This document shows positions 16,140-40,565 of a stretch of DNA of 64,000 nt, piece after piece (the first letter of the stretch is position 1; each line of letters begins with the position of its first letter). The position numbers and the translations under genes were made by a program. Origin of the DNA: Prorocentrum cordatum (Eukaryota; Sar; Dinophyceae; Prorocentrales; Prorocentraceae); NCBI GenBank assembly GCA_963575745.1, contig CAUYUJ010017791.1, positions 5,001 to 69,000 on the forward strand, in the 5' to 3' direction. The notes beneath the pieces are model-generated. The model was given only the letters and a program-made list of their open reading frames with translations. It searched no databases and was not told where the DNA came from.

Positions 16140-18172
16140 GTGATGATGTGATGAGGAGGAGGCGGAACAGGATAATTGGGAGGAGGGCAAGGAGGAGCGA
16201 GAAGGACATAAATAAGGGGTTGAGGGTCGGAAGGGCTAAGCTGCTATTCAATTTCCTGTGTTTCATGCTGCATTTGAGTGCCCACACTTGTTCGGTAGCT
16301 TGGGATTGTACTGGCCTCCTTCCGAACCGGAAGGCTTAACACGACACTCTCCAGGCGCTCTGCTTTCCGTTTGTGTCCGCGACCATGGAGACTGAGCCTC
16401 GCGCCCCCAACTTGGCCAACCAGTCGCGCTAAGGACTTGAACATCCAGCTGACGTACATGCCATTCGCAGCGGCTGGGAGGCTCAACCTTGCAGAGTCTC
16501 TGTGGGAGTTTCTCGAACGCAACAAGGCATTACCGGCACGCGCGATATCACCATCGTCATATCTCACTCTTGACCACCACCCGTATGTTGCCCTTTTACT
16601 TCTTCGCACGAACAGCTGACTGGGTTTCTCTGGTGCAGTTCTCTCATCGTTGGTCAGTGGCAGTGCCAGTGACAGCTGTAGCAGTGCACGGGAGCGATCG
16701 TCGGAGGAGTGCCAGTTGATACAAACGGCGGCTCGCCCGCCTGGCCCACATCCGCTCCTACTCGGTCCCCCGGGCCCCTCCCAGGATCCCTCCTGACCTG
16801 TTCTTGAGGCGGGTCGAGCCGTGTCGAAGGCCCAGCAAGGACCACAACGCCAACGAGCGCCGCCGTGGTTTCGACCACGAAAATCCGACGCCGTGTTTGT
16901 GCTTCCTTTCTCTCAAAAAGAAGACCCCCAGAGGTCTGGACCCCTTCCCCAGGACTGGCTTTTCGTCCTGGGTCGTTCTTTGACGGCCCTGGGGGCCCCG
17001 TAGAGCCCCCCTAGGGCCCGTCCATGGCGACAGCACTCCCGCCGCACCTTTTTCTTTCGGCCACGGCGCGAGGAGGCCACCCAACCCTCCCACAGGCCAT
17101 CGTGGTCACCCGGGCTGGTGAGGGGGTTAGCGTTAAGGCGGGCATGTCCCTCTACAGGACGACTTTTCAAGGATGGTACACGAATATTCAGGGTCGATTT
17201 TCTGTACTGCTCTTATTCTGATTGAGTAAACTTTGGCTATTCCGCACTTTTCTTCGGGAATCCGCCTGTAGAGGAGGACGTGCCCGACCTGAGGTTAGCG
17301 AATCGGCTCACGCAGCTGGCTCCCCCGGCGCACCCTGGCGCCGGGTGGCGGAGGCGCTCCTGGCGCCAGAGGCGCCAGGATGTGCACGCACTGGCGCCTC
17401 CGGCGCCAGAGTGCGCCTTGAGCTCTCGGGCGAAGAGAGCTATGCACACGCACCGATCCTGGCAAGGCCCATCCTTGGCCCCAGGATCGGTGCACATGCC
17501 TTCCTGGCCAAGGTCGGAGGGCGTATGCACCGATCCTGGGCTCAGGATGGGCCTGGCCAGAATCGGTGTATGTGCATAGTTCTTTTCTCCTCTATTGAGT
17601 GCACTCGATGCATGATGCATCGAGGGGAGCGCCCGGTGGCGGGGCCGAAACGAGCTGCCAGGAGCCGTGCCTCGAGCGGCAGCGCGTCCCGAGGGGGGGG
17701 ATCGGCCGGCGCCGCTCCTCCGGGCGGCAGCCAGCAGGCGGCGCGCGTGCCCTGCCGAGCGTTACGGTGAAAATCCATAGTAAGGACGGGTCGGCTTCCC
17801 AGGGGCACCCTTGCGTCCTTAGATTTGTTCGGCAGTGCGCCGCTAGAACAGCATGCATTGGGGCGTCCAAGGACCGTCCAAGGGTCTTGCGTCCTTGCAG
17901 CGCGTCCTTACTACAGATTGTGACTGTAAGTCGGGCATGTCCCTCTCTAGGAGGAATGTTCAAGAAGAGTCGCAACATCGTCCGCGGACGAGTTTTCGTT
18001 CTCTTGTGAATATTTTTTTGTTAAAAAAATGAATAAACAAATATTTTTCACTCTTCTTCCAGAATCCGCCTGTAGGAGGACATGCCCGACCTCGGCCGAG
18101 CGCGCAGGAGAACCTCATCAACAACGTGGCGCCCGAGTGGCGCAACGACTCCGCCGCCGCGCCCTCCCTCGC
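5823..18172 (+). CDS. Six-hairpin (GH95-like) glycoside hydrolase, five exons seen, partial
   Basis: Five short exons, joined in order, read as one conserved block of large (alpha/alpha)6 'six-hairpin' glycoside hydrolases, a family known mainly from Bacteroidetes and related to GH95-type enzymes. The order is: NWWHDFYP...FLSL, GDRTLDQFYW, VNMYKAASASRPGRPLYDLQ with GPWPVE, DLNIQLTYMPF...LAESLWEFLERNK, ENLINNVAPEWRNDSAAAPS. Each segment matches the remembered family block in spacing and order, and all joins preserve frame. Inferred junctions: 5907/10221 (GC-AG), 10249/11591 (GT-AG), 11669/16434 (at least one small exon, expected to carry the tryptophans before LNIQ, is not found), 16526/18108 (GC-AG). 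The N-terminus and the C-terminal catalytic half were not found, so the gene is partial or its remaining exons are hidden among repeats. The family name is from memory; exact GH assignment is uncertain. Confidence 0.65.
6343..6373 (+). repeat. GA dinucleotide microsatellite
   Basis: About 15 uninterrupted GA units. Confidence 0.95.
6660..7395. repeat. Inverted 11-bp minisatellite
   Basis: 6660-7140 is a tandem array of an 11-bp unit, consensus CAGTGGTCTGT with frequent variants (CAGTGGGCTGT, CAGTGGTTTGT). After a ~65-bp unique spacer (7141-7205), 7206-7395 is a tandem array of the exact reverse complement (ACAGACCACTG). The arms can pair over roughly 190 bp. The open frames across it (repeated SVVCQWSVSGL) follow from the unit length and are not taken as protein. 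Confidence 0.95.
7790..9180. repeat. Degenerate short-repeat zone without genes
   Basis: Base composition is closer to 50% G+C than the surroundings. 7790-8100 is built of loosely repeated GCTAATGCTGAA-like words, 8450-8640 of GCAACGCAATGC-like words, and 8790-9160 of CAATGGCGCA-like words. It looks like old, diverged minisatellite. No coding signal. Confidence 0.6.
9300..9670 (+). repeat. CTTGGGG satellite, short copy
   Basis: Loosely repeated CTTGGG(G/C)CnTCTT words of the same type as the large array at 43550-45960 and the copies at 57595-57740 and 63160-63395. Confidence 0.65.
10221..10249 (+). CDS. Glycosidase exon 2 (29 nt)
   Basis: Micro-exon between the CCCCAAG acceptor and a GTCGCC donor. 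With the single G carried from exon 1 it reads GDRTLDQFYW. The D-x2-L-x-QFYW motif directly follows FLS with the spacing expected for the family, which is the main evidence for the junction. Confidence 0.6.
10250..11590 (+). other. Glycosidase intron 2 with GAG microsatellites
   Basis: Inferred GT-AG intron (5' GTCGCCAGG, 3' CCCCCGGAG). Contains GAG runs at 10365-10430 and 11140-11415, and near its end the right terminus of a family A element (11514-11543). An alternative acceptor, CTGCAG at 11519-11524 inside that element, would add about 22 codons to exon 3. Confidence 0.5.
11418..11543. mobile_element. Family A element, left end missing (A1)
   Basis: The right terminal repeat is clear (TCTGCCTGCAGGAGGACATG then CCCGACCTGA, 11514-11543) and is preceded by the family's AT-richer interior (CACTATTTGGGATTCTTC). 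The left terminus is lost in the GAG microsatellite. Confidence 0.75.
11591..11669 (+). CDS. Glycosidase exon 3
   Basis: Reads VNMYKAASASRPGRPLYDLQ then GPWPVEG. The MYK-x-AS-x2-R-x-RP-x5-GPW pattern matches the family block immediately after FYW. The acceptor is CCCCCGGAG; the donor is taken as GTGCCC after GGAGG, but the frame stays open further, so the 3' border is uncertain. Confidence 0.65.
12490..12890 (+). repeat. ~155-bp tandem repeat, about 2.5 units
   Basis: Each unit has CCGAAATTGCTACAATCCCC, AGGGATCTCCG, GACGACTTGTGTCGCGGTCG and TCACGTTTTGGCCGCG. Units begin near 12522, 12637 and 12775, with internal sub-duplication of the GGCCGAAATTGCTACA segment. Confidence 0.85.
13640..13960 (+). 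repeat. GAG then GAT/GGT microsatellite
   Basis: GAG-rich run (13645-13755), followed by a degenerate GATGGTGATGACG tract to about 13960. Confidence 0.9.
14735..14960 (+). repeat. Family G dispersed repeat
   Basis: About 220 bp alignable by eye with 37915-38118, and a short piece near 1490-1540. Shared words are CCACCACnCTTCGGnGCGA, CCCGAGCnTTnCC, GCGCGACACGC-type and CCGCCGCGnCACnCTnA, ending AAAGTTCCTGGCCGTAG. Confidence 0.75.
15092..15488 (+). repeat. Direct duplication flanking a CT microsatellite
   Basis: About 100 bp at 15092-15190 recurs at 15386-15488: GTGAGAGTGTGCATCGACTT, then a TCTGGCCA block, then TTTCGAGGCTTTCGTCAGAT, then a TCATGTCC block. The second copy differs at only a few positions. 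A CT run (15312-15337) and unique sequence separate them. Confidence 0.9.
15540..16150 (+). repeat. GAG and ATG microsatellite block
   Basis: GAG/GAA-rich to about 15745, then interrupted ATG repeats, with pure runs at about 16012-16065 and 16098-16140. Confidence 0.95.
16434..16526 (+). CDS. Glycosidase exon 4
   Basis: Reads DLNIQLTYMPFAAAGRLNLA then ESLWEFLERNK (31 residues, 93 nt, phase 0 at both ends). LN-x-QLTY-x-P and N-x-L-x-ESL-x5-RNK are strong family signatures. The acceptor is GCTAAG and the inferred donor GCATTA, a GC donor. The join to exon 5 gives RNK-ENLINNV, as in the family. Confidence 0.7.
16912..17002 (+). repeat. Family C dispersed repeat
   Basis: CCCCCAGAGGTCTGGACCCC, TTCCCCAGGACTGGCTTTTC, GTCCTGGGTCGTTCTTTGAC, GGCCCTGGGGGCCCC. 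The same module occurs at about 46125-46232 and 60565-60690 in this orientation, and at 23185-23300, 29190-29290, 58848-58955 and 61083-61205 in the reverse orientation. Short, with a GGGCC palindrome near one end. Confidence 0.85.
17133..17292. mobile_element. Family A element A2, 160 bp, 8-bp TSD
   Basis: Left end TTAAGGCGGGCATGTCCCTC and right end GAGGACGTGCCCGACCTGA form terminal inverted repeats of about 25-30 bp. Flanked by perfect 8-bp direct repeats GGTTAGCG (17125-17132 and 17293-17300). An 8-bp duplication is typical of hAT-type transposition; no transposase is encoded. Confidence 0.9.
17434..17583. mobile_element. Family B element B1
   Basis: Terminal inverted repeats AGAGCTATGCACACGCACCG (left) and its near-complement ending GTGTATGTGCATAGTTCT (right), with an internal palindrome around CCGATCCTGG/CCAGGATCGG. 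Highly similar to the element forming an intron at 27630-27788. No clear target duplication is visible here. Confidence 0.85.
17926..18092. mobile_element. Family A element A3 with GTAAGT left end
   Basis: Starts GTAAGTCGGGCATGTCCCTC and ends CGCCTGTAGGAGGACATGCC then CGACCT. The left terminus contains a perfect-looking GTAAGT donor and the right one a CTGTAG acceptor, so the element could be spliced out alone. No target duplication is recognisable. Confidence 0.85.
18108..18172 (+). CDS. Glycosidase exon 5
   Basis: Reads ENLINNVAPEWRNDSAAAPS then LAS. NL-x-NNV-x3-(W/Y)R-x-D(S/A)AA is the family block that follows RNK. The acceptor is GCGCGCAG. The donor is unclear; the frame stays open into a polypyrimidine microsatellite. 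I found no later exon of the gene. Confidence 0.6.
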
Positions 18173-22690: not shown

Positions 22691-23184
22691 CCGCTTTCGT
22701 TCTGACTTCGTCTCGCAGCAGAGGCAGAGCGCAGGCAGAGCGAAGGAAAAGGCGAACACAAGCCGCGAGCGCGAACAACACCGTTTCGCTGGAGCCCTGG
22801 CAAGTATTGCAAGCCGAACCGACCACTACAGCGCGGCGGATGCCAGCCGCGGAGGCCCTGGGCGCCGGCGAGCCCGACTCGCCGGCCTCGCCCGCCTCGC
22901 AGGGCTGGTCGACGCCTGGGGCCGTCCGCCGGTGCTCGGGTCGTGAATCGGGCCGGGCGAAAGGGGGGGAATTGGGAAAGGGGGGGTTACCAACGTTGCT
23001 GCATGCAGCCGGTTTCGGCCTCACCGAGAGGCCCATTCCTCGATACATAGCCGCCTCCGGCGCCGGGGGGCGCCAGGAAAATCAGCTACGTGGGCTGATT
23101 AACAAACCCCCCCGTTGCTATCCCCCCCTTTCGCCCGACCCGAGTGAACAGAAACACGACGGACAGGTTTTCACCCTTTTCGAG
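22691..23184. other. Unresolved G+C-rich stretch
   Basis: A frame at about 22846-22945 (MPAAEALGAGEPDSPASPAS) is GC3-rich and may be an exon, but no family is recognised. Confidence 0.3.
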
Positions 23185-23300
23185 GTTTTGGGGCCCTGGT
23201 CAGACCCCAGGGCCGTCAGAAAACGACTCGGGATGAGGAACCGGTCCTGAGGTATGGGTCGAGACCTCCGGGGGTCCACGTTACGAAAAAATGATGACGT
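23185..23300 (-). repeat. Family C dispersed repeat
   Basis: Reverse orientation copy: GGGCCCTGGTCAGACCCCAG, GGCCGTCAGAAAACGACTCG, GGATGAGGAACCGGTCC, GTCGAGACCTCCGGGGGTC, then GATGACGTCGACG. Confidence 0.85.
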
Positions 23301-23449
23301 CGACGACGACGGCGAGGAGTAATTGGGAGAAGGACCGGTGTAAACCCAAGACTCATTAACGATCTTGCAATAATCCCTCCCTCCAAGTTCCCTCTTCATA
23401 GGCTCCTACACGGAGTCATTTTTACTGAAGGGAGTGCCGCGTTAATTGA

Positions 23450-23912
23450 TTGAAAATCTGGAATTGTGCCAGAACGCCATTCCTGGGACATCACCGCCGC
23501 GAATCACCGTTGCTGTTGCGTTTTCGCGATCCTGATAAATGCCAGAAAGCCATTCCTGGGATGCCAACGCCGCGGATCAATGTGACTGTTGCGCCCGGGC
23601 TGTCCCACATCATGCCCAAACACTGTTCTGGGACGTTAACCATGAAAATCCTTGAACCTGTTGCATGAAAAAACGAATGTGCGCGCGCTGAGGCGAGAGC
23701 CACGTTTTGAAAAGGAACCGCCCCCATCAGCGAATCTCTTGCACAACATTGTAATACGAATGGTCGCGGCGCTAAGGTGAGAGCCACATTTTGAAAACGG
23801 GCCGCCCTTCATCCGTGAATCTCTTGAAGCTTTTGAGACGAATGTGCGCGGCGCTAAGGCGAGAGCCACATTTTGAAAGCTGGCCGCCCTCCATCCGTGA
23901 AGCTCTTGCGAA
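23450..23912 (+). repeat. Two adjoining tandem repeats
   Basis: 23460-23620 holds two diverged ~80-bp units around CCATTCCTGGGA and ACTGTTGCG words. 23672-23912 holds three ~90-bp units with CGAATGTGCGCGGCGCTAAG, GCGAGAGCCACATTTTGAAA and CATCCGTGAATCTCTTG. Confidence 0.85.
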
Positions 23913-24014
23913 CTGTAAGCTTCAGGGTCATCAAGGGTGAGGAGGTCTCAGTCGAACCGCCCGGCCCGCCCTTTCGACCGGCCTCGGGGTGCGACAGGAC
24001 GGAGATATCTATAA

Positions 24015-24118
24015 TGAGCAGGGATGGAGGAGGAGAAGGAGGAGAAGGAGGAGAAGGAGGAGGAGGAGGAGCAGGAGGAGGTGGAGAAAAAAAAGGAGGA
24101 GGTTGAGGAGGAGGAGCA
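24015..24118 (+). repeat. GAG microsatellite
   Basis: GAG/GGA run interrupted by a short A stretch. Confidence 0.95.
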
Positions 24119-24289
24119 TGTACCGATATCGGTGCTCGTCCTGGAGAGCTTCCGTCGCCACGGCTGGATCCTTTCCGAAATTCTGGTCGAAACGCGCCCC
24201 AGGAGAGGGCCGGAGAGTAGCGGTGTCGGTTTTGTGTTTGTCCCTCTCAGGCGCAGCTCTCAGCAGCTTTCCGTCGCCTGGGAGGATCC

Positions 24290-24890
24290 GGGGCAGCGTT
24301 GGGGGGCGAGGGAGGGAAGGCTCAAGGGGAAACGTTGGGGCAACGTTGGGAGGATCAGGGGGCAACCTTGGGAGGATCAGGGGGCAACGTTGGGGGAGGC
24401 GCGAGGGAAGGCTCAAGGGGGGACGCATCGACCTGGAATCGCCCATCGATCGCCGATTGGGGCCCGATAGCCCTCCCCCGCCCAGGAGCGTGTGGTTTCG
24501 CTGTCGGGAGCCCATCTGACTGGTTCCCCCCAGTTCGACGACAACCCTTCCAAACCCCTCTGGAAACAGATAGCCCTCCCCCGCCCAGGAGCGTGTGGTT
24601 TCGCTGTCGGGGGCCCATCGCCGATCTACCGTAAGACCGCCAAGGGTTCGCTAGGGGCTAATGACTGGTTCCCCCTAAAACGACGACAACCGCTCCAAAA
24701 CCCTCTGGAAACAGTGCGGCAAGCCTCCCCGAACCCTTCTTGAAGGGTTCTGGCGGGTTTCGGGAGGGCTTCGGCTATTCCGAGGGGAAGCAAACTTTTA
24801 GCGAACCTTGGACTTCTAGGACTTCCAATGTAGGCTATGTATCGCCGATTCCAGGTCGATGTTTTCCCCCTTGGGCCGGTTCCCCTCCTA
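24290..24890 (+). repeat. Clustered family D repeats
   Basis: GGGGCAACGTTGGGAGGATC-type units repeat at 24330-24400, followed by two near-identical copies of the TAGCCCTCCCCCGCCCAGGA / GCGTGTGGTTTCGCTGTCGG block (about 24470 and 24572) and a third partial module at 24820-24890. Confidence 0.85.
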
Positions 24891-25074
24891 CACGCCAGTC
24901 GCTGAAGGTGGGTAGCTTTGGATTTCCAGATGCCAACCTTTTTCATGCAACTTACGACTTAAGAAACGGTATTATTATGTTGTTGTTGTTGTTATTCTTT
25001 GGGCGGCCCTTGAACCCAATCTACTTGATCGAGGTCAGGAGCTCCGCGCGGACCGCCAAAGGATTGCGATGACG

Positions 25075-25500
25075 CTGTTTTTTGCTCCTCTACTTTCTCC
25101 CTACTTTCTCCGCCTCGTGCTTCAGGCCCCTCCGCCGAGGGGTCGACCCCGTCGGAGCGGGGGGGGCCACGACGGCGGCACCTCTCCCGCCCGCCCCCGC
25201 GCCCGCCCGAGCTCCGTCTCCGAGCCTCTGCCCTCGGTGCACCCCAGACCTGCTCTTCGAGGCGCATGCGGCCGCGGCGACGAGATGCCCGCGGGAGGCC
25301 CAGCAAAGACGACGAGGCACGCCTCGACTGGCCCCTTCAGAGGACGAGACGCCTCCGGCCGCTGGGGCGGCGCCGCAAGCGCAGGCCGCGGCGTTCGGCT
25401 CCGGCAGCGTCTTCGACGTCGATGTGCGCGCGGGCGCGCCAGCGCCCTTCGCGCTGCCCTGCGCGCGGTACCTGGAGGAGTCGCTGCCGGGCGTACAAAG
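25075..25500 (+). CDS. Possible exon, function unknown
   Basis: A GC3-rich frame with an Ala/Pro-rich front part and a more complex end (FGSGSVFDVDVRAGAPAPFA then LPCARYLEESLPG). Candidate donor GTACAAAG at about 25493. It lies on the same strand upstream of the FAM227-like gene and could belong to it or to another gene. No domain recognised. Confidence 0.3.
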
Positions 25501-25504
25501 TTCG

Positions 25505-25702
25505 GTGGCGAGCGAGGGGGGGAGAAGAGAAGGAGAAGGCCTTCGCAGAGGGCGGCTGGGCTTCTCAGAAGCCCTCGCGCCTTCCGAGAGGTTGTCCATG
25601 TCTTGGGGGGAAGGCCCAGTTCTCAGAAGGGCCGAGGCCTTCCGAGTCTCCTGAGCAGGCCCGCCCCGTTTCGCTTTCCCCCCCCCCGCGCTCGCCGCCA
25701 AA
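25505..25702. mobile_element. Family E hairpin element, copy 2
   Basis: Begins GGTGGCGAGCGAGGGGGG and ends CCCCCGCGCTCGCCGCC, with internal CTTCTCAGAAG palindromes. It matches the better preserved copy at 42047-42240. Confidence 0.75.
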
Positions 25703-25759
25703 AAGTGGCCTTTCGCTGGAGTGACAGTTTGGTGCGGGGCACACAGGGGTCGGAGGAAG

Positions 25760-25925
25760 GAGGCGGAGGTGGAGGAGGAGGAGGAAGAGGAGGAGGAGGA
25801 GGAGCAGGAGGAGGAGGAGGAGGCGGAGGAGGCGGAGGAGGAGGAGGAGGAGGAGGCGGAGGAGGAGGAGGAGGCGGAGGAGGAGGAGGATGATGATGAT
25901 GAGGAGGAGGAGGAAGAGGAGGAGG
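25760..25925 (+). repeat. GAG microsatellite
   Basis: GAG/GCG run with a short GATGATGATGAT interruption. Confidence 0.95.
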
Positions 25926-26029
25926 ATGGATCCCACCAACACTGGCTTGCGCGCCTGGACTACCTGGATTAGAGGCCTTCCCAGGGGCACCCCCTCGAGC
26001 CGCGCACCAAGGGTCACTCCTGCCTGTGG

Positions 26030-26188
26030 TCGAGTCGGGTAGGTGTCCCTACAGGCGGAATGTTCAAAAGTAGGTCAACATAGTCTGGGGGCGATTTTTC
26101 GTCTAATGTTGAAAGTTTATCAGAGTACTTTTTGACTATTTTCATTTTCCCTCCAAAGTCTGCCTGTAGGAGGACATGCCCGACCTAA
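26030..26188. mobile_element. Family A element A6, 159 bp, 8-bp TSD (7/8)
   Basis: Left end TCGAGTCGGGTAGGTGTCCC, right end GGAGGACATGCCCGACCTAA. Flanks GCCTGTGG (26022-26029) and GCCTATGG (26189-26196). It lies about 400 bp 5' of the FAM227-like exon on the coding strand, so it may be within that gene's upstream intron. Confidence 0.88.
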
Positions 26189-26394
26189 GCCTATGGTCAA
26201 TCTTGCGTGCAGCGGAAGGAGTCGCTGCTGGGCATGCGGGTCGCCCCGAGGTCCGAGGCGGGGATTTCTCCACAGCCACCGCCCAGGGGATCGATCTTCG
26301 GGGACCTCGGCGGGCGTTGGACATGCATCTAACTCTTGGGGCCCTGGGGGGCCAAATCTGTCCATATCCACCGCCTGCCGAGGTCTCCGAAGAT

Positions 26395-26505
26395 CGGCAC
26401 CCGTGGCGGTGGTTACAGTCGGCCCTGATTAGTAGGTCGACCCTGCCAAATCAAGGGTATCTTTTTGTCCTGTGCCTCGCGACCCAAGCCTCCTACATTC
26501 CCATG
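26395..26505 (+). repeat. Dispersed repeat shared with 43250-43365
   Basis: Both copies contain TTACAGTCGG, ATTAGTAGGTCG-CCCTGC, AATCAAGGGT/AGTCAAGGGT and TTGTCCTGTGC in order. Confidence 0.75.
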
Positions 26506-26586
26506 GCAATGGGGCCCTCGGAAGGGCCTTGTGCCCTCCCGCGTGTCCTGCCCATTCACGTCGGACTGCATCGGATAGATCCCCTC

Positions 26587-29115
26587 ATCGCACGAGTAAC
26601 TTGCGTGAGCTGCTGGCGGTCGTCGACGGCGACTCCCAGTCGCCGCGCCGCACTTCCGCCGGCGCCGCGTGGGGCAGCTCGTCCCCGGCCGGCGCCGCCG
26701 CCTCGCTGCAGTGGCGGCGGCTCCGCCAGGTGCTGAGCTCGGCGGCGGCGCACGACGTCTGCACCGCGTTCTTCTGGCTGGCCGTGGCCGTCCTCTTCGG
26801 GAGGGCGCGCGAGGCGGACGTGCGGGAGGCGGAGAGATCGCTGGCGAGGAGCTGGCACCGCCTCAACATCGAGGCTGGCGAGGTCTGCTCGAGCCAGTCC
26901 ACTGCCAGCTCTTACATGGGTGCCAGGGACGAGACGCTGGATGCGCTGCCCACTTTGATAGTCCAGGCGGTCTTCAGGCTGCTCGTGGACGCCTTCGACG
27001 AGGAGCGTGCTGAGGTAGTGAAGCAGGCGGAGCCACTTCTCGACAAGCTGATGCTGATGGTGCACTACGAAGCGTCTGGCTTCCAGATGAATGTCTCCAC
27101 CTGCCGCGAGCTGAGGCGGAAGCTCTTCCGCCAGCACGTGACGGAGCAGCCGGCATTGGATCTGCAGGAGTCCCTGAGGCTGCAGCAGCGGCGCGACCAG
27201 CTGGAGAGGGAGAACACAAAGGGGCAGCACCCGCTGTCCTTTGGGCCCGGCGGAGTCGGCATGGAGGACCTGCAGCTGCAAAGCGTGCTGCAGAACCGCA
27301 GGAAGGAGAAGAAAGAGCGCGACCTCTATCGCCGTGCCACGGGGATCCCCCTGGGCCCAGACCCCGGCAGCCCACCCTTCGAGCTCACCGTGGACCACTA
27401 CGGCAGGGTGCGCCGGGAGGGCCTCGCCAGGCTGGACGCGCTGCGGGGCGCCACGACGGAGCCCACGGCTGGCCTCGGCCCCGGCGGGGGCGACCACGAG
27501 AGCGACGCCTCTGCGTCCGCGCTCGAGGCCGCACCGGCCGCACAGGGCGAGGGCGGCCGCGAGGCCCCCGAGGGCGTCATGACCGTCGCCCTCGGTAAGG
27601 CCCTGGCCAAGAAGGTGCGAAGGAGCGAGGTGAAGAGAGCTATGCACAGACACCGATCCTGGCCCACCCCTGGCCCAGGATCGGTGCAAATGCCTTCCTG
27701 GCCAAGGCGGGAGGGCGTATGACCTGATCCCGTGCTCAGGATGGCCCTGGCCAGAACCGGTATATGCGCATACTCCTCTTCCCCCTAGAGGAGCGAGGTG
27801 AAGGCGGCGGAGCGCAGCCGCCGCAAGGAGCAGCTGCGCCGCCACCTGCTCGGCGAGTCGCTGCCGGAGCCGCTGCGCGCGGGCGCCATCGAGACCTGCG
27901 GGGTGTCGCCCCTCTGCGGGTGGCTGGAGCCGAAGGTCCGGGTGGGGCCTAAGGTGTCCCCCGCCAGCCCCTCCTCCTCCTCCTCCTCCTCCTCCTCCTC
28001 CTCCTTCTTTCCTTCCTTCCTCCCTTCCTTATCCTTCTCCTCCTCCTCCTCCTCCTCCTCCTCTTCCTCCTCCTCCCCCGCCCCTCCCATCCTCGCTGCA
28101 GCTCCCAGTCCTCGTCGTGCCTCCTCCCACCTGCTTCCTCCCTCCTCCCTTCTCCCTGCCTCCCCGATCTCTCTCCCCCCTGGGGTCCTGTGGGGGCGCT
28201 GAGGGCGCAGTCGGGCCCGTAGAGCGCCGCGGAGGCGGCTCGCGGGCGCCCCCGAGGCAGCCGCGGAGCGCCCCGGTGTCCCTGGCCAACGGCGCTCCCC
28301 CCCCCCAGCTTTTCTCACTCCAGCTTGTCGGGGAAACGCAAGGCTCAAGTTCGCCACTCAGGCTTGCCGACGCTGCTTGACGGAGCAGTCCTGGATTCTG
28401 ACGGTCCAGTTTTCGTGGGATGCTTGCAGCGGGACCTCGCGTCAAGTTCTAGACGGGGTCTCGTCATTTTCCTGGCGGCCCCGTGAGGCCAACCCGAGTC
28501 CCCCGAACTCGAATCTTGCGTCTCCCCGATCTTGGAGCTTCTGGAGCCCTCGGGGCCTCCCCGACGAAACCCTGGGGCGTCGCCCCTGTGCGGGTGGCCA
28601 GGGCCGACTTTGCTCTGCGCGCATACTTCTCGGATCGGCTCTGAGCCCCCCGGCGGCGCGCTCTCTCGCGGCAGGGAGGAAGGCCCCGGCGCCGATCCCA
28701 GAAGTCTGCGCGGACCTCCGACAGTCGATGCCCGTGCTCTGTCATGCGGGCGCCTCCCCCCAGGCTTGCCGCCCGCGGGCCCAAGACACCCGCGCGGAGC
28801 TCCGACGGCTCGTGCCCGTGCCACCCCCTCTTCCTCCTCCTGCTCCTCCTCCTCCCCCTCCTCCTCCATCGCTTTCCCTTGCAGAGAACGCCTCCCTGCA
28901 TGGGCCCTCAGGTGGACGGCCGCCGGCTGGTCGAGAAGCGCATGCGGGAGAACTTCCGGCTCGCCATGAAGACGCCGCCGCTGCCGGGGCCCTCGGCCGC
29001 CGCCGCGGAGGCCCAGGCCGCCAGGGACCCGCGCGCCGCGCCGCTGCCGCACGTGCGCAAGGCTCCCACGGCGCGGGCCTGCGCCCGCCCCAGCGTCCTG
29101 GAGTCCGGGGGCGTC
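26587..29115 (+). CDS. FAM227-like protein (FWWh region), partial, three exons
   Basis: Exons 26587-27629, 27789-27941 and 28885-about 29115, all joined in phase 0. The protein has a leading LRELLAVVDGD segment, WRRLRQVLSSAAAHDVCTAF then FWLAVAVLFG (the F-W-hydrophobic-F signature of the FWWh region), a helical stretch with ALPTLIVQAVFRLLVDAFDE, and a linker. It ends with SPLCGWLEPK, RTPPCMGP and RLVEKRMRENFRLAMK, resembling the Ser-Pro-Leu and Arg-Thr segments of FAM227 proteins. FAM227 proteins are poorly characterised and conserved in ciliated eukaryotes; a ciliary or flagellar role is inference. Codons are strongly GC3-rich. The N-terminus, any further 5' exon and the true C-terminus are not resolved. 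Confidence 0.65.
27630..27788. mobile_element. Family B element B2 forming a complete intron
   Basis: 159-bp GT-AG intron (5' GTGAAGAGAGC, 3' CCCCCTAG) in the FAM227-like gene. Nearly all of it is a family B element with termini AGAGCTATGCACAGACACCG and GGTATATGCGCATACTCC. The 15-bp word AGGAGCGAGGTGAAG is repeated at 27621-27635 and 27789-27803. Without splicing the frame meets TGA at about 27720. Splicing retains 9 duplicated nucleotides (RSE repeated) and stays in frame. Confidence 0.85.
27942..28884 (+). other. FAM227-like gene intron 2
   Basis: Inferred GT-AG intron (5' GTGGGG, 3' TTTCCCTTGCAG). Contains polypyrimidine microsatellites at 27968-28085 and 28828-28872 and unique sequence without a recognised exon. 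Confidence 0.6.
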
Positions 29116-29189
29116 CAACCCAGACCCCCTCGCGTGGCGAAGAAGTCGCGACGGGGGGTGTTTCGCTATCTGCGGCCTCTTGGGGGCCC

Positions 29190-29300
29190 TTCCGGGGCCT
29201 CGGGGCCGCCAACAAAGGCGACTCGGGATGACAAGCCGGTCCCCGGGAAGGGGTCCAGACCTCTGAGGGGCACGTCATGAGAGAGTCACAACGTCGGGGG
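29190..29300 (-). repeat. Family C dispersed repeat
   Basis: GGGCCCTTCCGGGGCCTCGG, GCGACTCGGGATGACAAGCC, GGTCCCCGGGAAGGGGTCC, then CTCTGAGGGGCACGTCATGA and ACGTCGGGGG. Confidence 0.85.
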
Positions 29301-29344
29301 TTTGGGAAGAGGGGGGGGGGACTGTATGGGGGGTGGGTGGGGAG

Positions 29345-29592
29345 GTAGTTGTCATGGCCAGGGACACGACATCCCCCCAGCTCTCCTGGCCCGCTTTTCT
29401 TCTCTTAAGGCGTCCCCGGGTCCCCCCCCTGCCCCGTTATCATGGCCAGGGCCACGGCATACCCCAGTTCTCCTGGCCCGTTTTTTCCTGATCTCAGCGC
29501 GTCCCCGGGCCCTCCCCCCCCGTGATCATGGCGAGGGCCACGGCATCCCCCCAGCTCTCCGGGCCCTCTTTTGTCGGTTCTCAGTGCGTCCT

Positions 29593-29633
<41 letters not shown>

Positions 29634-29735
29634 TCTGCTCCTCCTCCTCCTCCTCCTCCTCCTTCTCCTCCTCCTCCTCCTCCTCCTCTTCCCTTTCCTC
29701 CTCCGCCTCCTCCTCCTCCTCCTTTGCTTGAGGGG
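29345..29735 (+). repeat. ~88-bp tandem repeat then CTCCTG/TCC microsatellite
   Basis: Three units with ATCATGGCCAGGGCCACGGC, CCCCAGCTCTCCTGGCCCG and GCGTCCCCGGG (starts near 29352, 29438, 29525), running into CTCCTG hexamers (29598-29640) and TCC triplets (to 29730). Confidence 0.9.
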
Positions 29736-29958
29736 TGAAAAGCACGCCGACCGCACCTCATGTACAATCCTACAGCAGTGACTTTGCGCTCCCCACCCGC
29801 TCGCCTCGGGGGCAGGGGGGACTGGGGAGCACTCATGGCGACGACCGTGTGACCTGGCCTGGGATGAAGATCTGCTACTACAACCCGTTGGAGGCGGGGA
29901 ACGAGCGCCTCGAAGACATAAGTACGGACTACACAGCTGGGACATCGTATTACTATGT

Positions 29959-30152
29959 TTAGGTCGGGCCTGTCCCCCTACAGGGGTATTTTCGACGAGA
30001 AGATATAAAAAACACCAACCATCCCCCAAAAAGGTTTAAACATTTTCAAAACATAGTCCCCATATTATTTTTGGATGTTTTTAATTATTATTTCTGGGGT
30101 ATGTTGTATTTGTTGTCGAACATCTCCCTGTAGGGGGACACGCCCGACTTAA
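29959..30152. mobile_element. Family A element A7 inside the LINE, perfect 8-bp TSD
   Basis: 194 bp. Left TTAGGTCGGGCCTGTCCCCC, right GGGGGACACGCCCGACTTAA. Flanked by identical TACTATGT at 29951-29958 and 30153-30160. Removing the element and one flank copy restores a continuous endonuclease frame (SYYYV-ARAGGQ), showing it inserted into the LINE. Confidence 0.92.
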
Positions 30153-31178
30153 TACTATGTGGCACGTGCAGGTGGGCAGGACCAGATACCGTACAGCGTA
30201 CATACCTACCCTCACACGTTGTACTACAGTTTGGGGCCCGAAGAGGAAACTGGGTCAACAAGAGTTGCGGGACAGCCATACTACTCAGTCACAGGATAGA
30301 CGAATGAGCCATCAGGGAAATATGCACCCCACCAGCATACCTCCACGGACGGGTTTCAGGAGTCCGCATTGCTACCAGGGGTTTGCACTATACTACGTAC
30401 CTGCGCACGTCCCATACTACGCAGCACTGCAGACAGCATCACAGGGTGTCTGGAACAACGCACCGACAAGCTAGGGTGTCGCACTGCAGTGGTATTGGGA
30501 GGAGACGTGAAACGTGACCTAGGGTGCCAGCGCGACTACGACGGTACAACCATATGCAGCAGAGGTCCCATCATAGGTAGGCAGCAGCCCAAGATAGAGA
30601 ACGCCAACGGCACCAGCTACAGAAACCTTTGCCAGACAAACGACCTCAGTGTAGTCACCACTCACTGCAATGTAGGTCCAACCTGCTATGAACATTCGGG
30701 ACAAAGCCATCCCGACTGGTGCACTAGGGCTTGTAAAACAATGCGCGGCACTCCACTTATCAGGCAAGCGGTTCCAGGTGATAAAGCGCGAGGACACAGA
30801 TACCACTTACCCACAGGCAGTACGCTACCAGCTTCGACCGCCACCTCCTTCTTCCCCACTCGGCCCCGTATACAACAAGGTCTGTGCAGAGAAGGACTCA
30901 TGCAGTGCCTCCGCACAGGACACAACCACCCTGGACCAGAAGGTAGAGGCAGTGGGGGGGGGGGGAAGTGAGAGGGGGCGCTTGCGGAACCAACTCCAGA
31001 TACTACTTGGGGCCTACTCGGGGGGTGCAGTGCTTACCACTTTGCTGAAGAACCAGGGACAAGACGAGGTGGACGAGCTAACGAAGAAAGCAACAGCAAC
31101 TCGGCTCCAGCTACGACGTCGAAAAGGAGCCCACGACAACGACTCACCGACGAAGCCACGGCCGAATAATACGACGAA

Positions 31179-31640
31179 GTAGAAGCCGAGCTCCAAGAAA
31201 TCAGCGCAGCACTCGAGCGGACCGGGCGACAGGTGGAGGAGGAGGAGAAGAGGGCCAAGCTAGTAGAACGTATCTGGGAGGCCCACGAGCGCAGGAATCT
31301 TGCTGACATGCACCGGCTCAGAATACGATGCCGGCGAAGCGGCAGAGGCCCGAAGACACGCCCCCACCTTGCCCCCAACACAAGCTGGCCTAACGAATAC
31401 TAGCTGCAAGACCTGGGACGACCAGCGCGCGAGGGAGGACTCGGGGCACAGCCGATCGGCCGAGCCGAAACACGAGCAGAGCACGCACACCACGTTTCGG
31501 ACACCATCGAACGACTACCGGCTGGCACCGAAATACGGGGGCATGTCGAAGACGACAATCAGGCGATGTTGCGATACTGTCAGCGAGCGTGCAACAGAAG
31601 AGCCTGGCCAGAATGGGGGAGACCTACAGAAATGACCTGT
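31179..31640 (+). pseudogene. LINE linker between endonuclease and RT
   Basis: Frame with an acidic/basic coiled coil (EAELQEISAALERTGRQVEE, EEKRAKLVERIWEAHERR), then RGPKTRPHLAPNTSWPNEY, an in-frame TAG (31401-31403), and LQDLGRPAREGGLGAQP. The basic RGPKxR segment followed by a GGL segment is characteristic of dinoflagellate LINE linkers as I remember them. Confidence 0.6.
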
Positions 31641-32764
31641 TTACTCCTCGACCCCTCCCTCCACCTTATGACCCCCGCCGACGAATCCATCCAGCTCGAG
31701 CTCCGCAGGATAGCAGCAGCAGAAAGGAGAGGAGACGAGGAGGACCTGGAGCACTACACTACTCTGGGTAAGTTCAAGAAAGGGAGAGAGCTACTACAGA
31801 AACTCGGGTTCATTATGGGTACAGCATGCGGCAAGGCAGACGGGCCAGTGGACGATGACATCTATGCAGGGATGTGGGTGCAGCGGTCATGCGGCGTGGG
31901 CAGAGGGAACTGCGCGAGACGAGGGACGCCGAGGATGAACGAGCTCCAGCACAAGTACAACCACTACTTCGACCAGTTCATACTGCAGTTTCGCAGCTGC
32001 CAGGTTGCGCCGTTAGATTGGCATCGCTCACAAGCCTTCCCAGGATTGAAACACACAGCTCCAAAGACGACGTTCTGGGCAAGCGGATACTTCGCGCCTG
32101 CGGCTCATTCGGAATGGCATGGCTCGCAGGGGTGCAACAACGAGGCCCCCCCGACCGACCACCCACCATGGATACAGAGAGGCCTACCGTACAGGTGCAG
32201 GGCAAACTCTACCCTCTGCGTCCAAGCTGCCCAGTGGAGGGCGGCGCAAGGAGGGGCCAGCACCGTCGCCGCCAACTACGACGGTGCCAATGCATTTGCA
32301 GCCACAAACTGCGCACGACTAAAAGCGGTAGCGTTTAACCATGTATACGAAAGCGACCACCGTTGCGCACTGACTGCCATTGGTCACTCCACCATGACAC
32401 TCGGGGCAGCAGGTTGCCCAGTAGAAGCTGAAAGCGCAACTGGAGCACGAATGGGTTTTACTTCCGCCCGCGATAATTTAACGACGCGTGCGACATTTAC
32501 GTCAGCAAATGGGGGTCGCAGGACCCAAGCCAGATTATGCATGACACATGCGACCCATTGGGGGGCAACACACACGGCGTAGGCCTACACACACTCATGG
32601 GCGACATCCTTCACGTGCAAACAATCCCAGAAATGGCCACGACAAGACATAGAGACACACATCATGAGACAAGCCACCTATTATGCTCAGTGGGCATGGG
32701 TAACTGCGGTACCGCCAGGGCCTAACGACGCAGCTCCACATTACGAGGGTTCGCCCTCAGAGAA

Positions 32765-33060
32765 ATGAGGGTGCTGGGGCCGTACCTACCAGCGGGCCAG
32801 GGCATCGCGGGCGAAATCGCCAGACGCATTCGTGCGAGAAGACTGGCCTGGCGACAATGCGGTGCCTTCTGGACATCCGATACGCCACGTCAGATCAAAC
32901 GACTCATGTGCGTGGCCTTCGTCAGAGGCGCGGTCCTCATTGGACTGACGGCAATCGTTACAGCCGCAGCTTGCACCAATGCGTTATATAGTGCGTTGGG
33001 CAAATACTTACGTACTTTACCAGGACGGGCTATGTCTTGGGAAAAGGAGGGCGTCACCAT
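32765..33060 (+). pseudogene. LINE reverse transcriptase thumb region
   Basis: Reads EIARRIRARRLAWRQCGAFW, then PRQIKRLMCVAFVRGAVLIG, LTAI, and ALGKYLRTLPGRAM. The spacing A-x2-W-x5-FW, K(R/L)x6-V-x-GA-x-L-x-GL and the R-x-L-x-GRA end are the usual thumb pattern. The frame changes near 33060 and continues as SLTVRRLRWCQ. Confidence 0.7.
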
Positions 33061-33665
33061 GCGCTGCAACAGCCTACGGCACGTATTCAGGTACTGGAGG
33101 ATGGAACGTTCAAGTATCGCTGACGGTGCGACGACTGCGGTGGTGCCAGGCTTGTTCCTGCTACCCCGGGGAGCACGGCGCGGTTTTCGCTGCAGTGTTT
33201 GGCTCTTCCCGACTAGACGTATCACGGGGGGCCGGGGGGCTTGCGGGTGCAAATTGGATCGGACCACATTCTACAGTGTTCCCAACAATTTGCAGCAGGC
33301 ATGCAGTGAAACTTCGGTTGGGACGGGGGGGATGGGCTGATGCACGCAACGGGGTTCTGATCTGGCCATATTCGAGACATGGGGGTACATGACAAACACA
33401 ATGGTTACATGCAGACCCCATAGTACTGTGCAGCAGCGAAAGAAACTGGGATGTACTCGCGAGGGGTGAGGAGGAGGGGGTTAATGGAGGAGAGGAGGAG
33501 GATGACTTACTACGACCTTACTGGTGTAACCACGTTACGGTGGACACTGATGGAGTGGAAACAATATGTGGACAGCGGTGCCAGACCTACGCGGTCTTTG
33601 CAGGGCACCGACGGGACATTCGCAGCATTCGAGCAGTCGTTGCAGCAGTAATAGTTGACACCCAG

Positions 33666-33750
33666 TGTCCACGGTGTAAGAGTGCACTTGCATACAGAAG
33701 AACAACGATCGGCCATGCCGCGAGATCGGTCCACAGACGCGGGCTATGCC
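33666..33750 (+). pseudogene. LINE C-terminal CxxC/H zinc finger
   Basis: CPRCKSALAYRRTTIGHAAR then SVHRRGLC: a CxxC pair, then H, S and G-x-C with the spacing seen in post-RT zinc fingers of dinoflagellate LINEs. A second CPLC-like finger is not intact downstream. Confidence 0.65.
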
Positions 33751-34085
33751 GCCAGGACAGGTCCAAGTGCAATAACCCAGGACACCAACGTGTCGGTTCT
33801 GTGCCCATCAGGCTCAGACGCTAGAAGAGTATCAGGCGCGCATGCGAGAGCACCGCGCGGGCCCAGACCAGATCAGAGCGGCTAAAGGCGGAGATGCGCG
33901 CAGCTTGAAACGCCGAGGTCGAGGCGGTGGAGCGGCAAGTCAAGCGCCCGCTGCCGACGGAACCAGGAGCTGCGACCGCAGAAGCAGGCCGACCTCGGCG
34001 AGGGCAGCGGCAGCCAGGCGCCCCGACCAAGAGCCCGAGGAGGAGGGCGGGGTCGCGGACCCCCAGGGGGGGGTGGCGGCCCGGG

Positions 34086-34660
34086 TGGGGGGGAGGAGAG
34101 GGAGTGCAAGCAGACCTACGAGGCAGCGTGCACTGCAGCGGCTGGCCCTCCAGAACTCAGCCGGGGTCTGCAACCTTTCCCACGTCGCAGGCGAGTTCTG
34201 GCTCGCCCTCCTCGTGGAAGAGTGGATCCAGTCCCCTATGGGGGCGCGCCGCGAGTGCGGTGGGGGGGCGGGGGCCGAGGGCAAGGGCCACTGGCGCGGA
34301 CCTCCTAGCGGCCGCGTCGCGGCGGCCTCCGCGGAGGCGATCGCGGGGGCGCTCATGGCCGAGGCGCGGGGCGACGAGCGGCCGATGCAGTGCGCGGCCA
34401 AGACCCTCGCGGAGTTCATGGAGCAGCTGGGCCAGCCGGGGGGACCAACGTTCGACGCGGAAGTCTCCCTGCAGTGCAAGATCCAGGAGGCGTGCGAGCC
34501 GACGGAGGAGGGGGTGGAGACGGGGCAGCGCGGCGCCGAGCCGAGGCCACGTGCGAGATCAATGCGTCGCTGTGTTTTCAGGGTGGCGCTGTGCGAGCTG
34601 AACCTGGACCGGGCCCAGCGCGAGAGGATCCGTCGCTTCAATGGGGGTCGTGTTCAAGCA
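34086..34660 (+). CDS. GC3-rich frame: LINE C-terminus or separate gene
   Basis: Unlike the LINE body, codons here end mostly in G or C. Segments RLALQNSAGVCNLSHVAGEF, GPPSGRVAAASAEAIAGAL and LAEFMEQLG, then VALCELNLDRAQRERIRRF, fit the tail of dinoflagellate LINE ORFs in order. However, TGTGTTTTCAGG just before VALCEL (34572-34582) looks like a splice acceptor, which would favour a spliced host or domesticated gene. The frame continues open to TAG at 35006-35008. Confidence 0.4.
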
Positions 34661-35008
34661 GGCCTCGGGGCCGGCGCTGGCGTACTATGGCGCCAAGAAG
34701 AGCCGCTCAGGAGGCCCGACGCCGGGCTTGGAGAGGGTCGTCGAGGCCCAGCTCAGCGGGCGCCGCGGACAGAAAGCCAGCCACTAGAGCCACTAGAGAA
34801 GCCCAGCAGCCCTCGGCCGACCGCAGTTGCGGGCCACGCGAGCGCCCCTGCAGGACCCGCGGGGCCAAGGCCATCCAGCGACTGGTCGCCTTCAGCCCCG
34901 CCGCGCCCCAGAGCGGAACAACTCGCGATGCAGATCGACATCGGCCTCGAACGATATGCAACCTTATGGGGAAATTTTCGATTTGAGGGCCACATGGCTA
35001 CCTACTAG

Positions 35009-35775
35009 TGGGAACAACATCCGAGGGAATATTATCAGGCCATGGGGCAACAATGAGGAAAGGTTGGCCAGCGCGATCTGCCATCCTACACTCGCGTTTC
35101 TGCGGTCTAATCCCCCGCCCACCACTACTTTCTTCATCGCTATCGGCGCGCTGGCCTCAGGTGCAGGACTAGGCAGACAGCTACTGGAATCAGGGCCTCG
35201 CGGCTACAGGATATGTGCGAGTGCGCGTGCGAATGTGGACCTACCTGCGCATGGAATCCACCGACGAGAAGACTGCGGACCAACATCGGTGCCCACCTAC
35301 CCCACACACCATAAGGGGGCAACCAAGGGCCTCCACAGGGATCGCCCACTACGGGGCCTCAGGAGTCAGGGAGTCAGGGGGGAAGCTGAGCCGGGACCGA
35401 CGCAGGACATTGAGCGCCAGGAGCTGGACGGACCAGGACGCCTAAGCCTTTGCCAGACCCTTCGCTTTCTCCCACCACATCGACACCATTACGGACCTTG
35501 GCCCGCTCTCTCCCACTTGATGTGTTCCCTCAGCTCAGGAAACAACCGGGCTGGGCCAGGGGTGCAAGGCGACGGCTCCGACTCCAGCGCTGCCTAGGTC
35601 CGTCTCCTACCGCAGCCTTTCGGCTCGATCCGAGCCTTTCAGCATCCTCCCGCGCGCGGGACCTATTGGGGCCGCCGACGCCAGCGCCCAGTCGGCGCGG
35701 CTCAGCGGCGCAGCCTGGCCGCTTGGGCGGTAGCGGCCGCTGCGGCCCAGCCGACAACGCCGGCGTAAGAGGCGG
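35009..35775. other. Non-genic or unresolved stretch
   Basis: No recognisable gene. Composition is intermediate between the LINE and the following GC3-rich frame. Some of it may be LINE 3' region. Confidence 0.4.
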
Positions 35776-35779
35776 CGAC

Positions 35780-36120
35780 GACGATGGGCAGCTGGCGATC
35801 CAGAAGTCTGCTGAGCGCGGCGGCGGCCCAGGCGACCACGTCTTCGGAGCCTTGCAGTGCCCCCTGGGGGCCTGCGGCGAGACGCTGCAGAGCGCCGGCG
35901 AGAAGTGCGACGACACCATCCAGCACAACCAGATGGCGCTCTACGGCTTCTACAAGCAGCAGGAGCGCATCACCGTGAGCTTGACGAGGGTCGCCGCCAG
36001 CAAGAGCCCGAACCAGTATGAGGAGATTGGGCGCACTCATGGGACGGAGCTCTTGAAGCAGCAGCTCGGCGAAAACGGCAGAGCCATTGAGCACTCCCGC
36101 GGCGTCGAGAGCATTTTCTG
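35780..36120 (+). CDS. Unrecognised GC3-rich reading frame
   Basis: Reads DGQLAIQKSAERGGGPGDHV, then CGETLQSAGEKCDDTIQHNQ, MALYGFYKQQERITVSLTRV and YEEIGRTHGTELLKQQLGEN. Third codon positions are more than 90% G or C in 35930-36070, much better than the two other frames or the antisense strand (a Leu-rich frame that looks like a mirror). Mostly helical and charged. No family recognised. The frame continues to TAG at 36638-36640 but loses codon bias after about 36120, so the exon likely ends near there. Confidence 0.4.
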
Positions 36121-36124
36121 CAGC

Positions 36125-37020
36125 CGGAGCAGACCCCGCAAGGGCCCCCACCCGTGGGAGCCAGACTACCCGGTACACGAGTCTCCAGATCGGCTTGAAG
36201 GCCACGGCGCCAAGTGGATGGAAAATGATTGCGGCTGGGACTACGACGAGGTGGCGGCGGTGGATCAGAGCTGTCTCGGCAGCCTGCAGCAGCCGCGCAA
36301 CAGTGGTACGCAGCAGCGCCCGAAGTGCACGAACCCCAGCAAGTCCATCCAGGGGTGGACACCTCACGTGAAAGTGCTGCCGACGCAGCTGCAGCTCCAG
36401 CCAGCCCTCGCCCCCGCCAGGCATTCCAGCGGAGCCTGGTGCGCCGAGCCCGAGCGGGGGCCTTCGCCTCCGCGACCCATCGGTCGCAGAGAAGGCGGGG
36501 TGGGGGCCGGGCTGCACGTCGTGAGCAGTGATTCCAGCCAGCAGCCGGCCCTTATTCTAGCGGGGCCCGACCTGCCAGCGTCAGAAGCTTTCCCGTCCGG
36601 CATTCTCTTGCCACTGAGGCCAACTAGTGACGGAGAGTAGCCAACTCGCGGCAGGCGGCCTCCCATTCAGTTCAGCAGCAGCAGGCCATCGTTTTCTCTC
36701 TTTCGCGTCGTGCCGACAGCAGTGAGAGAGGTGGTCGGAGAGGTGTGGGGCGTGGGGGGGGGAGGGGTGTGGGGCGGGGGGGGGGGGTAAGGCTCTCAGC
36801 GGCCTTGGGCGCGTCCCAGTCGGGGAACACCGAGGGCCGCCTGCGTCCGCCATCCAGCCGCCCAGGGCAGGGTCTCCCTGCTAGGGCGCAGCTGCGAAGG
36901 CAGCGCCCGCAAGGCAGCCCCCGACAGGCAGTCGAGGGGGCCTGCATCCGAATGTTCACCCAGGGGCCGCCCTGCCTTTTTTTTCTAGGCGTCGTGACTT
37001 AGACCCCCAACGGCCTCATC
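36125..37020. other. Non-genic stretch
   Basis: Weak codon bias to about 36600, then G-rich sequence (36740-36790, GTGTGGGGCGGGGGG type) and a T run at 36978. Nothing recognised. Confidence 0.4.
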
Positions 37021-37188
37021 CTTGTCCTCCTCCTCCTCCACTTCCTCCTCCTCCACTTCCTCCTCCTCCACTCCTCCTCCACTTCCTCCTCCTCCTCCTC
37101 CTCCTCCTCCTCCTCCTCCTCCTCCACTTCCTCCTCCTCCTCTTCCTCCTCCTCCTCCTCCTCCTCCTCCTCCTCCTCCTCCTCCTGT
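37021..37188 (+). repeat. TCC microsatellite with CCACTT interruptions
   Basis: TCC array in which CCACTTCCTCCT units recur at 37038-37095 before purer TCC. Confidence 0.95.
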
Positions 37189-37366
37189 CCCCCGAGGAGC
37201 GGGGGCCGCAGAGCGCGGGCGCCGGCAGGCCCGCCGGCCAGGGGCGGCAGGCGCGCGCCCCTCGGAAGGCGAGGAAGGTCGGGGGCGGCGCTGCGGACGG
37301 CACCTTTTGGTGGGCGGCGTGCCGCTCCGCCTGACGAGCGAGCCGCGCGCACCCATGGCCATCGGG

Positions 37367-37527
37367 TTAAGTCGGGCACGTCCCTCTACAGGAGAAATGT
37401 TCAGAAACAGTAAGCAAATCATGCGGGGACGATTGTTCGGTCTTTCTGTTCTTATGTTTTGAGTATCTTCTGACACGGTTTTGTTTTTCGCTCTCAATCG
37501 GCCTGTAGGGGGACATGCCCGACCTAA
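37367..37527. mobile_element. Family A element A8, 161 bp
   Basis: TTAAGTCGGGCACGTCCCTC at the left, GGGGGACATGCCCGACCTAA at the right, with interior ATGTTCAGAAACAGTAAGCA. Flanking 8-mers do not match, so the target duplication has decayed or ends were exchanged. Confidence 0.85.
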
Positions 37528-37539
37528 TTCTAGGCCTTT

Positions 37540-37735: not shown

Positions 37736-37783
37736 CCTCTGGTGTCGCTCAGCCTGACGAGCGAACGGCATAATCACACCAAT

Positions 37784-37911: not shown

Positions 37912-37914
37912 ACG

Positions 37915-38118: not shown

Positions 38119-38120
38119 GG

Positions 38121-38333: not shown

Positions 38334-38339
38334 GTAGGC

Positions 38340-40560: not shown

Positions 40561-40565
40561 CCGCC

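What the first reader, a model, noticed from the sequence alone, without database searches (positions are those of the whole stretch)
27621..27803. A family B element is an entire 159-bp intron in a FAM227-like gene
The coding frame is broken by a 159-bp segment bounded by GT and AG, flanked by the 15-bp direct repeat AGGAGCGAGGTGAAG. Almost the whole segment matches a second inverted-repeat element at 17434-17583 located inside another gene's intron. Splicing restores the frame with a 3-residue duplication. This looks like direct evidence of intron gain by a transposon.
Basis: partly seen in the sequence, partly recalled or inferred. Interest (0 to 1): 0.88.

Follow-up and report, generated by a model that had tools for sequence, protein, structure and literature searches.

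The report
Mobile element acting as intron
In a dinoflagellate genome, a short mobile DNA element that sits inside a gene is apparently cut out of the messenger RNA as an intron, and close relatives of the element elsewhere in the genome show how such introns arise; the general phenomenon is already known.

Summary
A 162-bp member of a repeat family fills an intron of a Prorocentrum cordatum gene, flanked by an exact 15-bp direct repeat. The family is a 167-bp palindromic MITE-like element; 49 of 73 sampled copies show a 5-bp target duplication. It is an introner family. Copy L117 has intron-less paralogous DNA sites, one with a single CCAGG. Copy L113 has a 100%-identical, spliced, cDNA-like product. 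In both, AG comes from the target duplication and GT from its last G plus the element's first T, so the frame is restored exactly. The deposited protein implies a 168-bp intron (27630-27797) without a 3-residue duplication. No Pfam match supports FAM227. 'Inside another gene's intron' was not tested for the second copy. The window copy is an old (84.6%), atypical member: its repeat is 15 bp, not 5, and its left 10 bp read as target sequence. How that arose is unresolved (long target duplication, staggered-break capture or template switch). Introners in dinoflagellates, including P. cordatum, are published, so this is a new member of a known kind. No empty site or RNA read was available for the window intron itself.

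The parts
27621..27635 (+). Upstream copy of the 15-bp direct repeat AGGAGCGAGGTGAAG; exon ends after ..GAG (27629), donor GT at 27630-27631
27630..27797 (+).
27626..27787 (+). MITE/introner family member (84.6% to the majority sequence of 39 other copies, 25 substitutions, 5 gap positions); the first 10 bp (27626-27635) read CGAGGTGAAG, as in the target, instead of the family's TCGGGCGAAG; right end CCCCTA complete, followed by one extra G
27789..27803 (+). Downstream copy of the 15-bp direct repeat; acceptor AG at 27796-27797, exon resumes at 27798 (GTGAAG)
17426..17594 (+). Second family member in the window (94.0% to the family majority), with canonical ends TCGGGCG...CTCTA; TTGAG present on both sides (17418-17422 and 17595-17599) with 3 extra bases on the left
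26595..27629 (+). Coding exon upstream of the intron (P0001 from residue 98)
27798..27938 (+). Coding exon downstream of the intron (exact 3' end ambiguous within a boundary repeat; GT-AG placement ends it at 27935)
22840..41258 (+). Whole gene of P0001 (701 aa, unnamed protein of Prorocentrum cordatum); four other introns were resolved, with boundary repeats of 4-7 bp, one reading GA-AG and one GC-AG; four 5' introns were not resolved

Best explanation
The insert is an old copy of a 167-bp palindromic MITE-like element family of Prorocentrum cordatum that has become a spliceosomal intron, i.e. an introner. Shown for the family: it inserts with a 5-bp target duplication at many places with unrelated flanks. 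When an insertion falls sense-wise in an exon at NNAG^G, the duplicated target supplies the 3' AG and the G of the 5' GT, while the element supplies the T and a pyrimidine-rich right end, so removal of the element plus one duplicate restores the frame exactly (L117 at DNA level, L113 with a spliced product). Inferred for the window copy: the same principle works through a 15-bp repeat that contains GAG|GTGAAG, with donor and acceptor at the same offset in the two repeat copies, giving a 168-bp intron with no net change of the protein.
For: Window copy: exact 15-bp repeats and 83-84.6% match to the family. The deposited protein fits exact 168-bp excision and keeps a stretch shared with two cDNA-like relatives. 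Family: 55 of 73 unique copies have a 5-6 bp repeat in strict register, as do 43 of 59 further copies chosen for AGGT at the left end. L117: paralog protein P0004 aligns 249 residues with 0 gaps across the excised junction. Four genome places cover P0004 residue 203 without interruption; the three that I fetched align without internal gaps to the excised L117, and C18955 has a single CCAGG. L113: P0005 is 100% identical over 186 of 186 residues across the junction and maps to the locus in separate exons, from a contig too short to be genomic. At the thresholds, 7 loci have a stop-free coding signal on both sides; 7 of 7 are in frame after exact excision.
Against: No empty orthologous or paralogous site was found for the window intron: the three other P0001 matches in the genome (33-41% identity, L027, L029, L030) do not reach residue 442. 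The 15-bp repeat and the altered left end do not match the family's usual insertion. P0001 is a deposited gene model, not an RNA read. The coding score was trained on P0001's own exons, so the L001 row is not independent; L055, also among the 7, is not an exact intron. 55 of 59 AGGT-type copies show no two-sided coding signal. One later C9147 match of the L117 gene holds a TGA.
Confidence: 0.85

Rival explanations
1. Break-repair capture: a staggered double-strand break in the exon was filled in (15-bp duplication) and repaired by capturing a MITE fragment whose left end was lost, joined through the shared GAAG; the intron is then a repair product and not a transposition product.
For: 15-bp repeat instead of 5; the element's first 6-10 bp are missing while its right end is complete; GAAG is shared by element and target. 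Intron gain with 4-12 bp repeats at staggered breaks is published for Daphnia (PMC4202315, passages read).
Against: L055 has intact ends and a 17-bp repeat, and its 163-base joined site with a single copy has 40 equal-length or near-full matches in the genome, so long duplications also occur with complete elements. The right end of the window copy is intact.
Confidence: 0.3
2. Ordinary insertion with a 5-bp duplication (AGGAG), later modified: a template switch between the two AGGAG copies replaced the element's first 10 bp with the downstream exon sequence CGAGGTGAAG, extending the repeat to 15 bp and importing a GTGAAG donor.
For: AGGAG sits 5 bp in register with the family's left end, and GAAG at the far end is shared by element and target.
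Against: Needs an extra rare event, and the right side needs one extra G. No second copy with a comparable pattern was found among 131 unique copies; L085 (10 bp) and L157 (9 bp) show shorter overlaps that chance could give.
Confidence: 0.25
3. One reading: donor 27630, acceptor 27788, 159-bp intron, with RSE duplicated in the protein.
For: CTAG at 27785-27788 is the first AG after a pyrimidine-rich stretch (scanning rule recalled).
Against: The deposited protein P0001 lacks the duplication, and so do P0002 and P0003, although those species may lack the intron.
Confidence: 0.12
4. A pre-existing intron at this site was invaded and largely replaced by the element, so no new intron was gained.
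For: Other introns of the gene also have short boundary repeats.
Against: Apart from one extra G, only element sequence lies between the two 15-bp repeats; the four other resolved introns have boundary repeats of only 4-7 bp and are 312 bp or longer.
Confidence: 0.08

Closest known systems
Introner elements of dinoflagellates (Roy et al. 2023, Curr Biol, not held; seen only as summarised in PMC11453091, passage) and of Prorocentrum cordatum (PMC10666404, passages)
   Same: Short repeated elements with inverted repeats that make up introns; active transposition inferred; same species in PMC10666404.
   Different: The passages read describe P. cordatum introners by a pattern (inverted repeats of 8-20 nt, direct repeats of 3-5 nt) and do not name this family; the window copy's 15-bp repeat is longer than that pattern.
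Introners with splice sites recruited from the target duplication (Gozashti et al. 2022, PMC9860276, passages)
   Same: Whole or partial recruitment of both splice sites from the TSD and exact restoration of mRNA length are described there.
   Different: The TSD examples in the figure legend have 4 or 8 bp (3-9 bp is given as the general range); here 5 bp, with a GT split between TSD and element.
Amoebophrya introners (Farhat et al. 2021, PMC7789003, passages)
   Same: Inverted repeats forming a hairpin, 3-5 nt direct repeats over exon borders.
   Different: Many of those introns are non-canonical; the introns studied here read as GT-AG.
Daphnia introns from staggered double-strand breaks (PMC4202315, passages)
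   Same: Direct repeats of adjacent exon sequence at opposite ends of a new intron (4-12 bp there).
   Different: The filler here is an identifiable member of a MITE family.

Membership tests
Introner (transposon-type) | Members of one repeat family constitute whole introns in unrelated genes | tested here: met
   Window gene (gene model), L117 gene and L113 gene; L128 and L111 by reading frame only
Introner (transposon-type) | Insertion causes a target duplication and an intron-less site exists | tested here: met
   Met for L117 (CCAGG); for the window copy no intron-less site was found
Introner (transposon-type) | Splicing restores the coding sequence | tested here: met
   L113 through P0005; window copy through the deposited protein P0001
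Introner (transposon-type) | Window copy has the family's own duplication length and ends | tested here: not met
   15-bp repeat, left 10 bp altered
MITE (non-autonomous DNA transposon) | Short, terminal inverted repeats, high copy number, fixed short target duplication | tested here: met
   167 bp, near-palindromic fold with 75 pairs; first-look candidates 575 and 1550, mostly unscored; 5-6 bp repeat in 55 of 73 copies
MITE (non-autonomous DNA transposon) | Autonomous partner transposase with the same ends | not tested
   No search was made for it
FAM227 protein family (host gene) | Match to a Pfam family of that name | tested here: not met
   No such match in the Pfam scans (E up to 10 asked for in 24)

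The most novel reading that the evidence does not exclude
The window intron was not made by an ordinary 5-bp insertion alone. Its splice donor was acquired when repair copied the neighbouring exon (AGGAG...GAAG) over the element's end, so that donor and acceptor came to lie at the same offset of a 15-bp repeat. Repair-assisted 'fitting' would then turn otherwise unspliceable insertions into exact introns.
Probability: 0.2. Interest if true: 0.6.

Novelty: new member of a known kind. Interest (0 to 1): 0.45.

Why it matters
How spliceosomal introns originate is a long-standing question. This family gives, in one genome, a filled site with intron-less paralogs at DNA level, a spliced cDNA-like product, and many copies without two-sided coding signal for comparison. 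It makes a simple rule testable: insertions show no excess of AGG at their left edge (54 AGG against 68 GGA), and those that read NNAG^G in the sense direction within an exon can survive as exact introns. The window copy suggests that an introner can persist to about 15% divergence.

Tried and rejected
Rejected: (1) FAM227 identity. (2) 'The family is an ordinary MITE that only once became an intron', my view after (1 of 49 five-bp TSDs ended AGG; note); overturned. (3) Selection for the hairpin in the window copy: 15 pairs broken against 15.4 expected, 0 compensatory changes against 0.7 expected, although the intron folds better than its shuffles (z -3.86). (4) Open frame across the junction as evidence: uninformative, many copies pass. 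(5) L055 as an intron: its coding signal is on the strand opposite to the element, in an RNase H/endonuclease-like multicopy gene (motifs recalled), and by my reading its 17-bp repeat allows no exact GT-, GC- or GA-AG excision.

Full report
Setting. The window is G000:C16942:5001-69000 of a 4.13-Gb, 21,875-contig genome. A deposited protein named 'unnamed protein product [Prorocentrum cordatum]' lies on a contig of 224,505 bp, the length of C16942, and maps exon by exon to the window. I therefore take the genome to be P. cordatum (assembly of 4.15 Gbp in 22,724 scaffolds in PMC10666404, passages read).

Observation. The 15-bp repeat AGGAGCGAGGTGAAG is exact and occurs only at 27621 and 27789 on the + strand of the window. 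Between the copies lies a segment 83% identical to 17435-17590. The read-through frame contains two stops. The deposited protein P0001, however, reads KKVRRSEVKAAERS. All 17 placements that reproduce it are 168 bp long; one is GT-AG, 27630-27797, and one is GA-AG, 27623-27790. With the GT-AG placement, donor and acceptor lie at the same offset (9) of the two repeat copies, so nothing is duplicated in the protein. The relatives P0002 and P0003 (74 and 76% identical; longest contigs of 2,108 and 1,895 bp for proteins of 648 and 509 aa, so cDNA-like) show no duplication either, but their genomic structure is unknown. The gene model contains an exon of about 54 nt between introns of 8.1 and 3.3 kb that read as GA-AG and GC-AG; I infer that transcripts informed it. 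The four other introns resolved show boundary repeats of 4-7 bp; four further introns near the 5' end were not resolved.

The family. Two DNA searches gave 40 places each (first-look candidates 575 and 1550, of which 40 each were scored). After removal of duplicates there were 73 copies, the two window copies included. Their majority form, from 39 copies without the finding's copy, is 167 bp, TCGGGCGAAGAGA...TTCTCTTTCCTCTA, and folds almost end to end as a palindrome (75 pairs). In strict register 49 of 73 have a 5-bp and 6 of 73 a 6-bp direct repeat, 1 has 17 bp, 4 have 3 bp (the finding's copy among them, since its left end is displaced) and 13 none, the second window copy among them. Identity to the majority form is 94-100% for 39 of the first 40 copies and 84.6% for the finding's copy. 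That copy is thus an old member; no closer sibling appeared among the 40 places scored. Other old copies keep a 5-bp repeat, for example L158 at 84.9%.

The family makes introns. Pattern AGGTN{0,6}GAAGAGARCTATGCA has 76 matches in the genome and 0 in the reversed control; the finding's copy is the only one with no base between AGGT and GAAG. I fetched 59 of the 76 (two of them, L144 and L147, share the same sequence around the element). 43 of the 59 have a 5-6 bp repeat, 3 have 3 bp, 13 none. A codon-usage score trained on P0001's exons was applied to 132 copies (rows with N or short flanks were skipped; the script did not print their number). At its thresholds 7 loci have a stop-free coding signal on both sides: L001 (the finding's copy), L117, L113, L128, L111, L003 and L055. 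All 7 are in frame after exact excision of element plus repeat; L001 is not independent of the training set, and L055 is in frame but not an exact intron. Four of the 59 AGGT copies (L117, L113, L128, L111) are in this set, all with the element in sense orientation, giving AG|GTCGGGCG...NNAG|G; 55 of 59 are not.

Two of these are verified further. L117 (C9147): the paralog protein P0004 aligns 192/249 identical with 0 gaps across the junction. In the genome, P0004 matches cover residue 203 without interruption at four places, C7847, C14367 (contig length as for P0004's own contig), C18955 and C18528, and break at 203/201 in C9147, where the element sits. I fetched the first three. In DNA, C18955 reads GGGCAACTCCCAGG|GGGGGCTGGAC with one CCAGG, against CCAGG-element-CCAGG in C9147. 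A later match of the C9147 gene holds a TGA, so whether that gene is intact is open. It maps to the locus in pieces separated by introns, and residues 1-259 alone span 1.5 kb there, so the contig is too short to be genomic and derives from spliced RNA. L128 and L111 rest on reading frame alone. L003 could be a GC-AG intron (G|GCCATCGGG...CTCTAG|GCCA), an idea not tested further.

Target choice. Genome-wide, 54 of the 76 matches read exactly AGGTCGGGCGAAGAGARCTATGCA (my count), against 68 for GGA in place of AGG. There is no excess of AGG against this one control, so intron-forming insertions look like a filtered minority and not a targeting preference. The antisense arrangement AGGTAGAGGRAARAGAACTATGCA has 37 matches; these were not examined as introns.

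The finding's copy is odd. Its left 10 bp are CGAGGTGAAG, as in the target, where the family has TCGGGCGAAG; its right end is complete plus one G. Among 131 unique copies only L055 (17 bp) and this copy (15 bp) have long repeats; the next has 10. For L055 the joined site, holding the 17 bp once, matched at 40 of 40 scored places (54 candidates), 37 of them over all 163 bases and 3 over 162, so a 17-bp duplication with intact ends really accompanies that insertion. Three routes remain for the finding's copy: a long target duplication with loss of the element's tip, capture at a staggered break, or a 5-bp duplication followed by a template switch. I cannot decide between them.

Known work. Introners are known from dinoflagellates and from P. 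cordatum (passages of PMC10666404, PMC11453091, PMC7789003), and recruitment of splice sites from target duplications is described in PMC9860276 (passages). Papers holding introner and dinoflagellate: 13; with Prorocentrum as well: 4; introner with MITE, intron gain and target site duplication: 0. In the passages that I read, this family is not named. I did not read supplements, and Roy et al. 2023 is not held, so I do not claim that the family is undescribed.

Noticed in passing
about 17130-17290, 17930-18090, 26040-26190 and from 29960: A second kind of inverted-repeat element with ends like GGTCGGGCATGTCC...GGACATGCCCGACC and an AT-rich middle; one copy lies between the P0001 exon pieces at 25340-25486 and 26219-26248. 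Its tips share TCGGGC with the family studied here.
   Followed up: no
L055 (C16485): Family member with intact ends and a 17-bp direct repeat inside a multicopy RNase H/endonuclease-like gene (motifs recalled), antisense to it; the joined site has 40 scored matches in the genome.
   Followed up: partly
L003 (C20336): Copy with duplication GGCCA whose exact excision would be a GC-AG intron in frame; a possible second mode of splice-site recruitment.
   Followed up: no
29101-37196 and 37251-40550: Introns of the same gene that read as GA-AG and GC-AG, with 5 and 8 equivalent placements.
   Followed up: no
about 53000-55100: Long arrays of repeats with 8-bp period (TAGGGCTA-like in part) noted in the repeat scan.
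   Followed up: no
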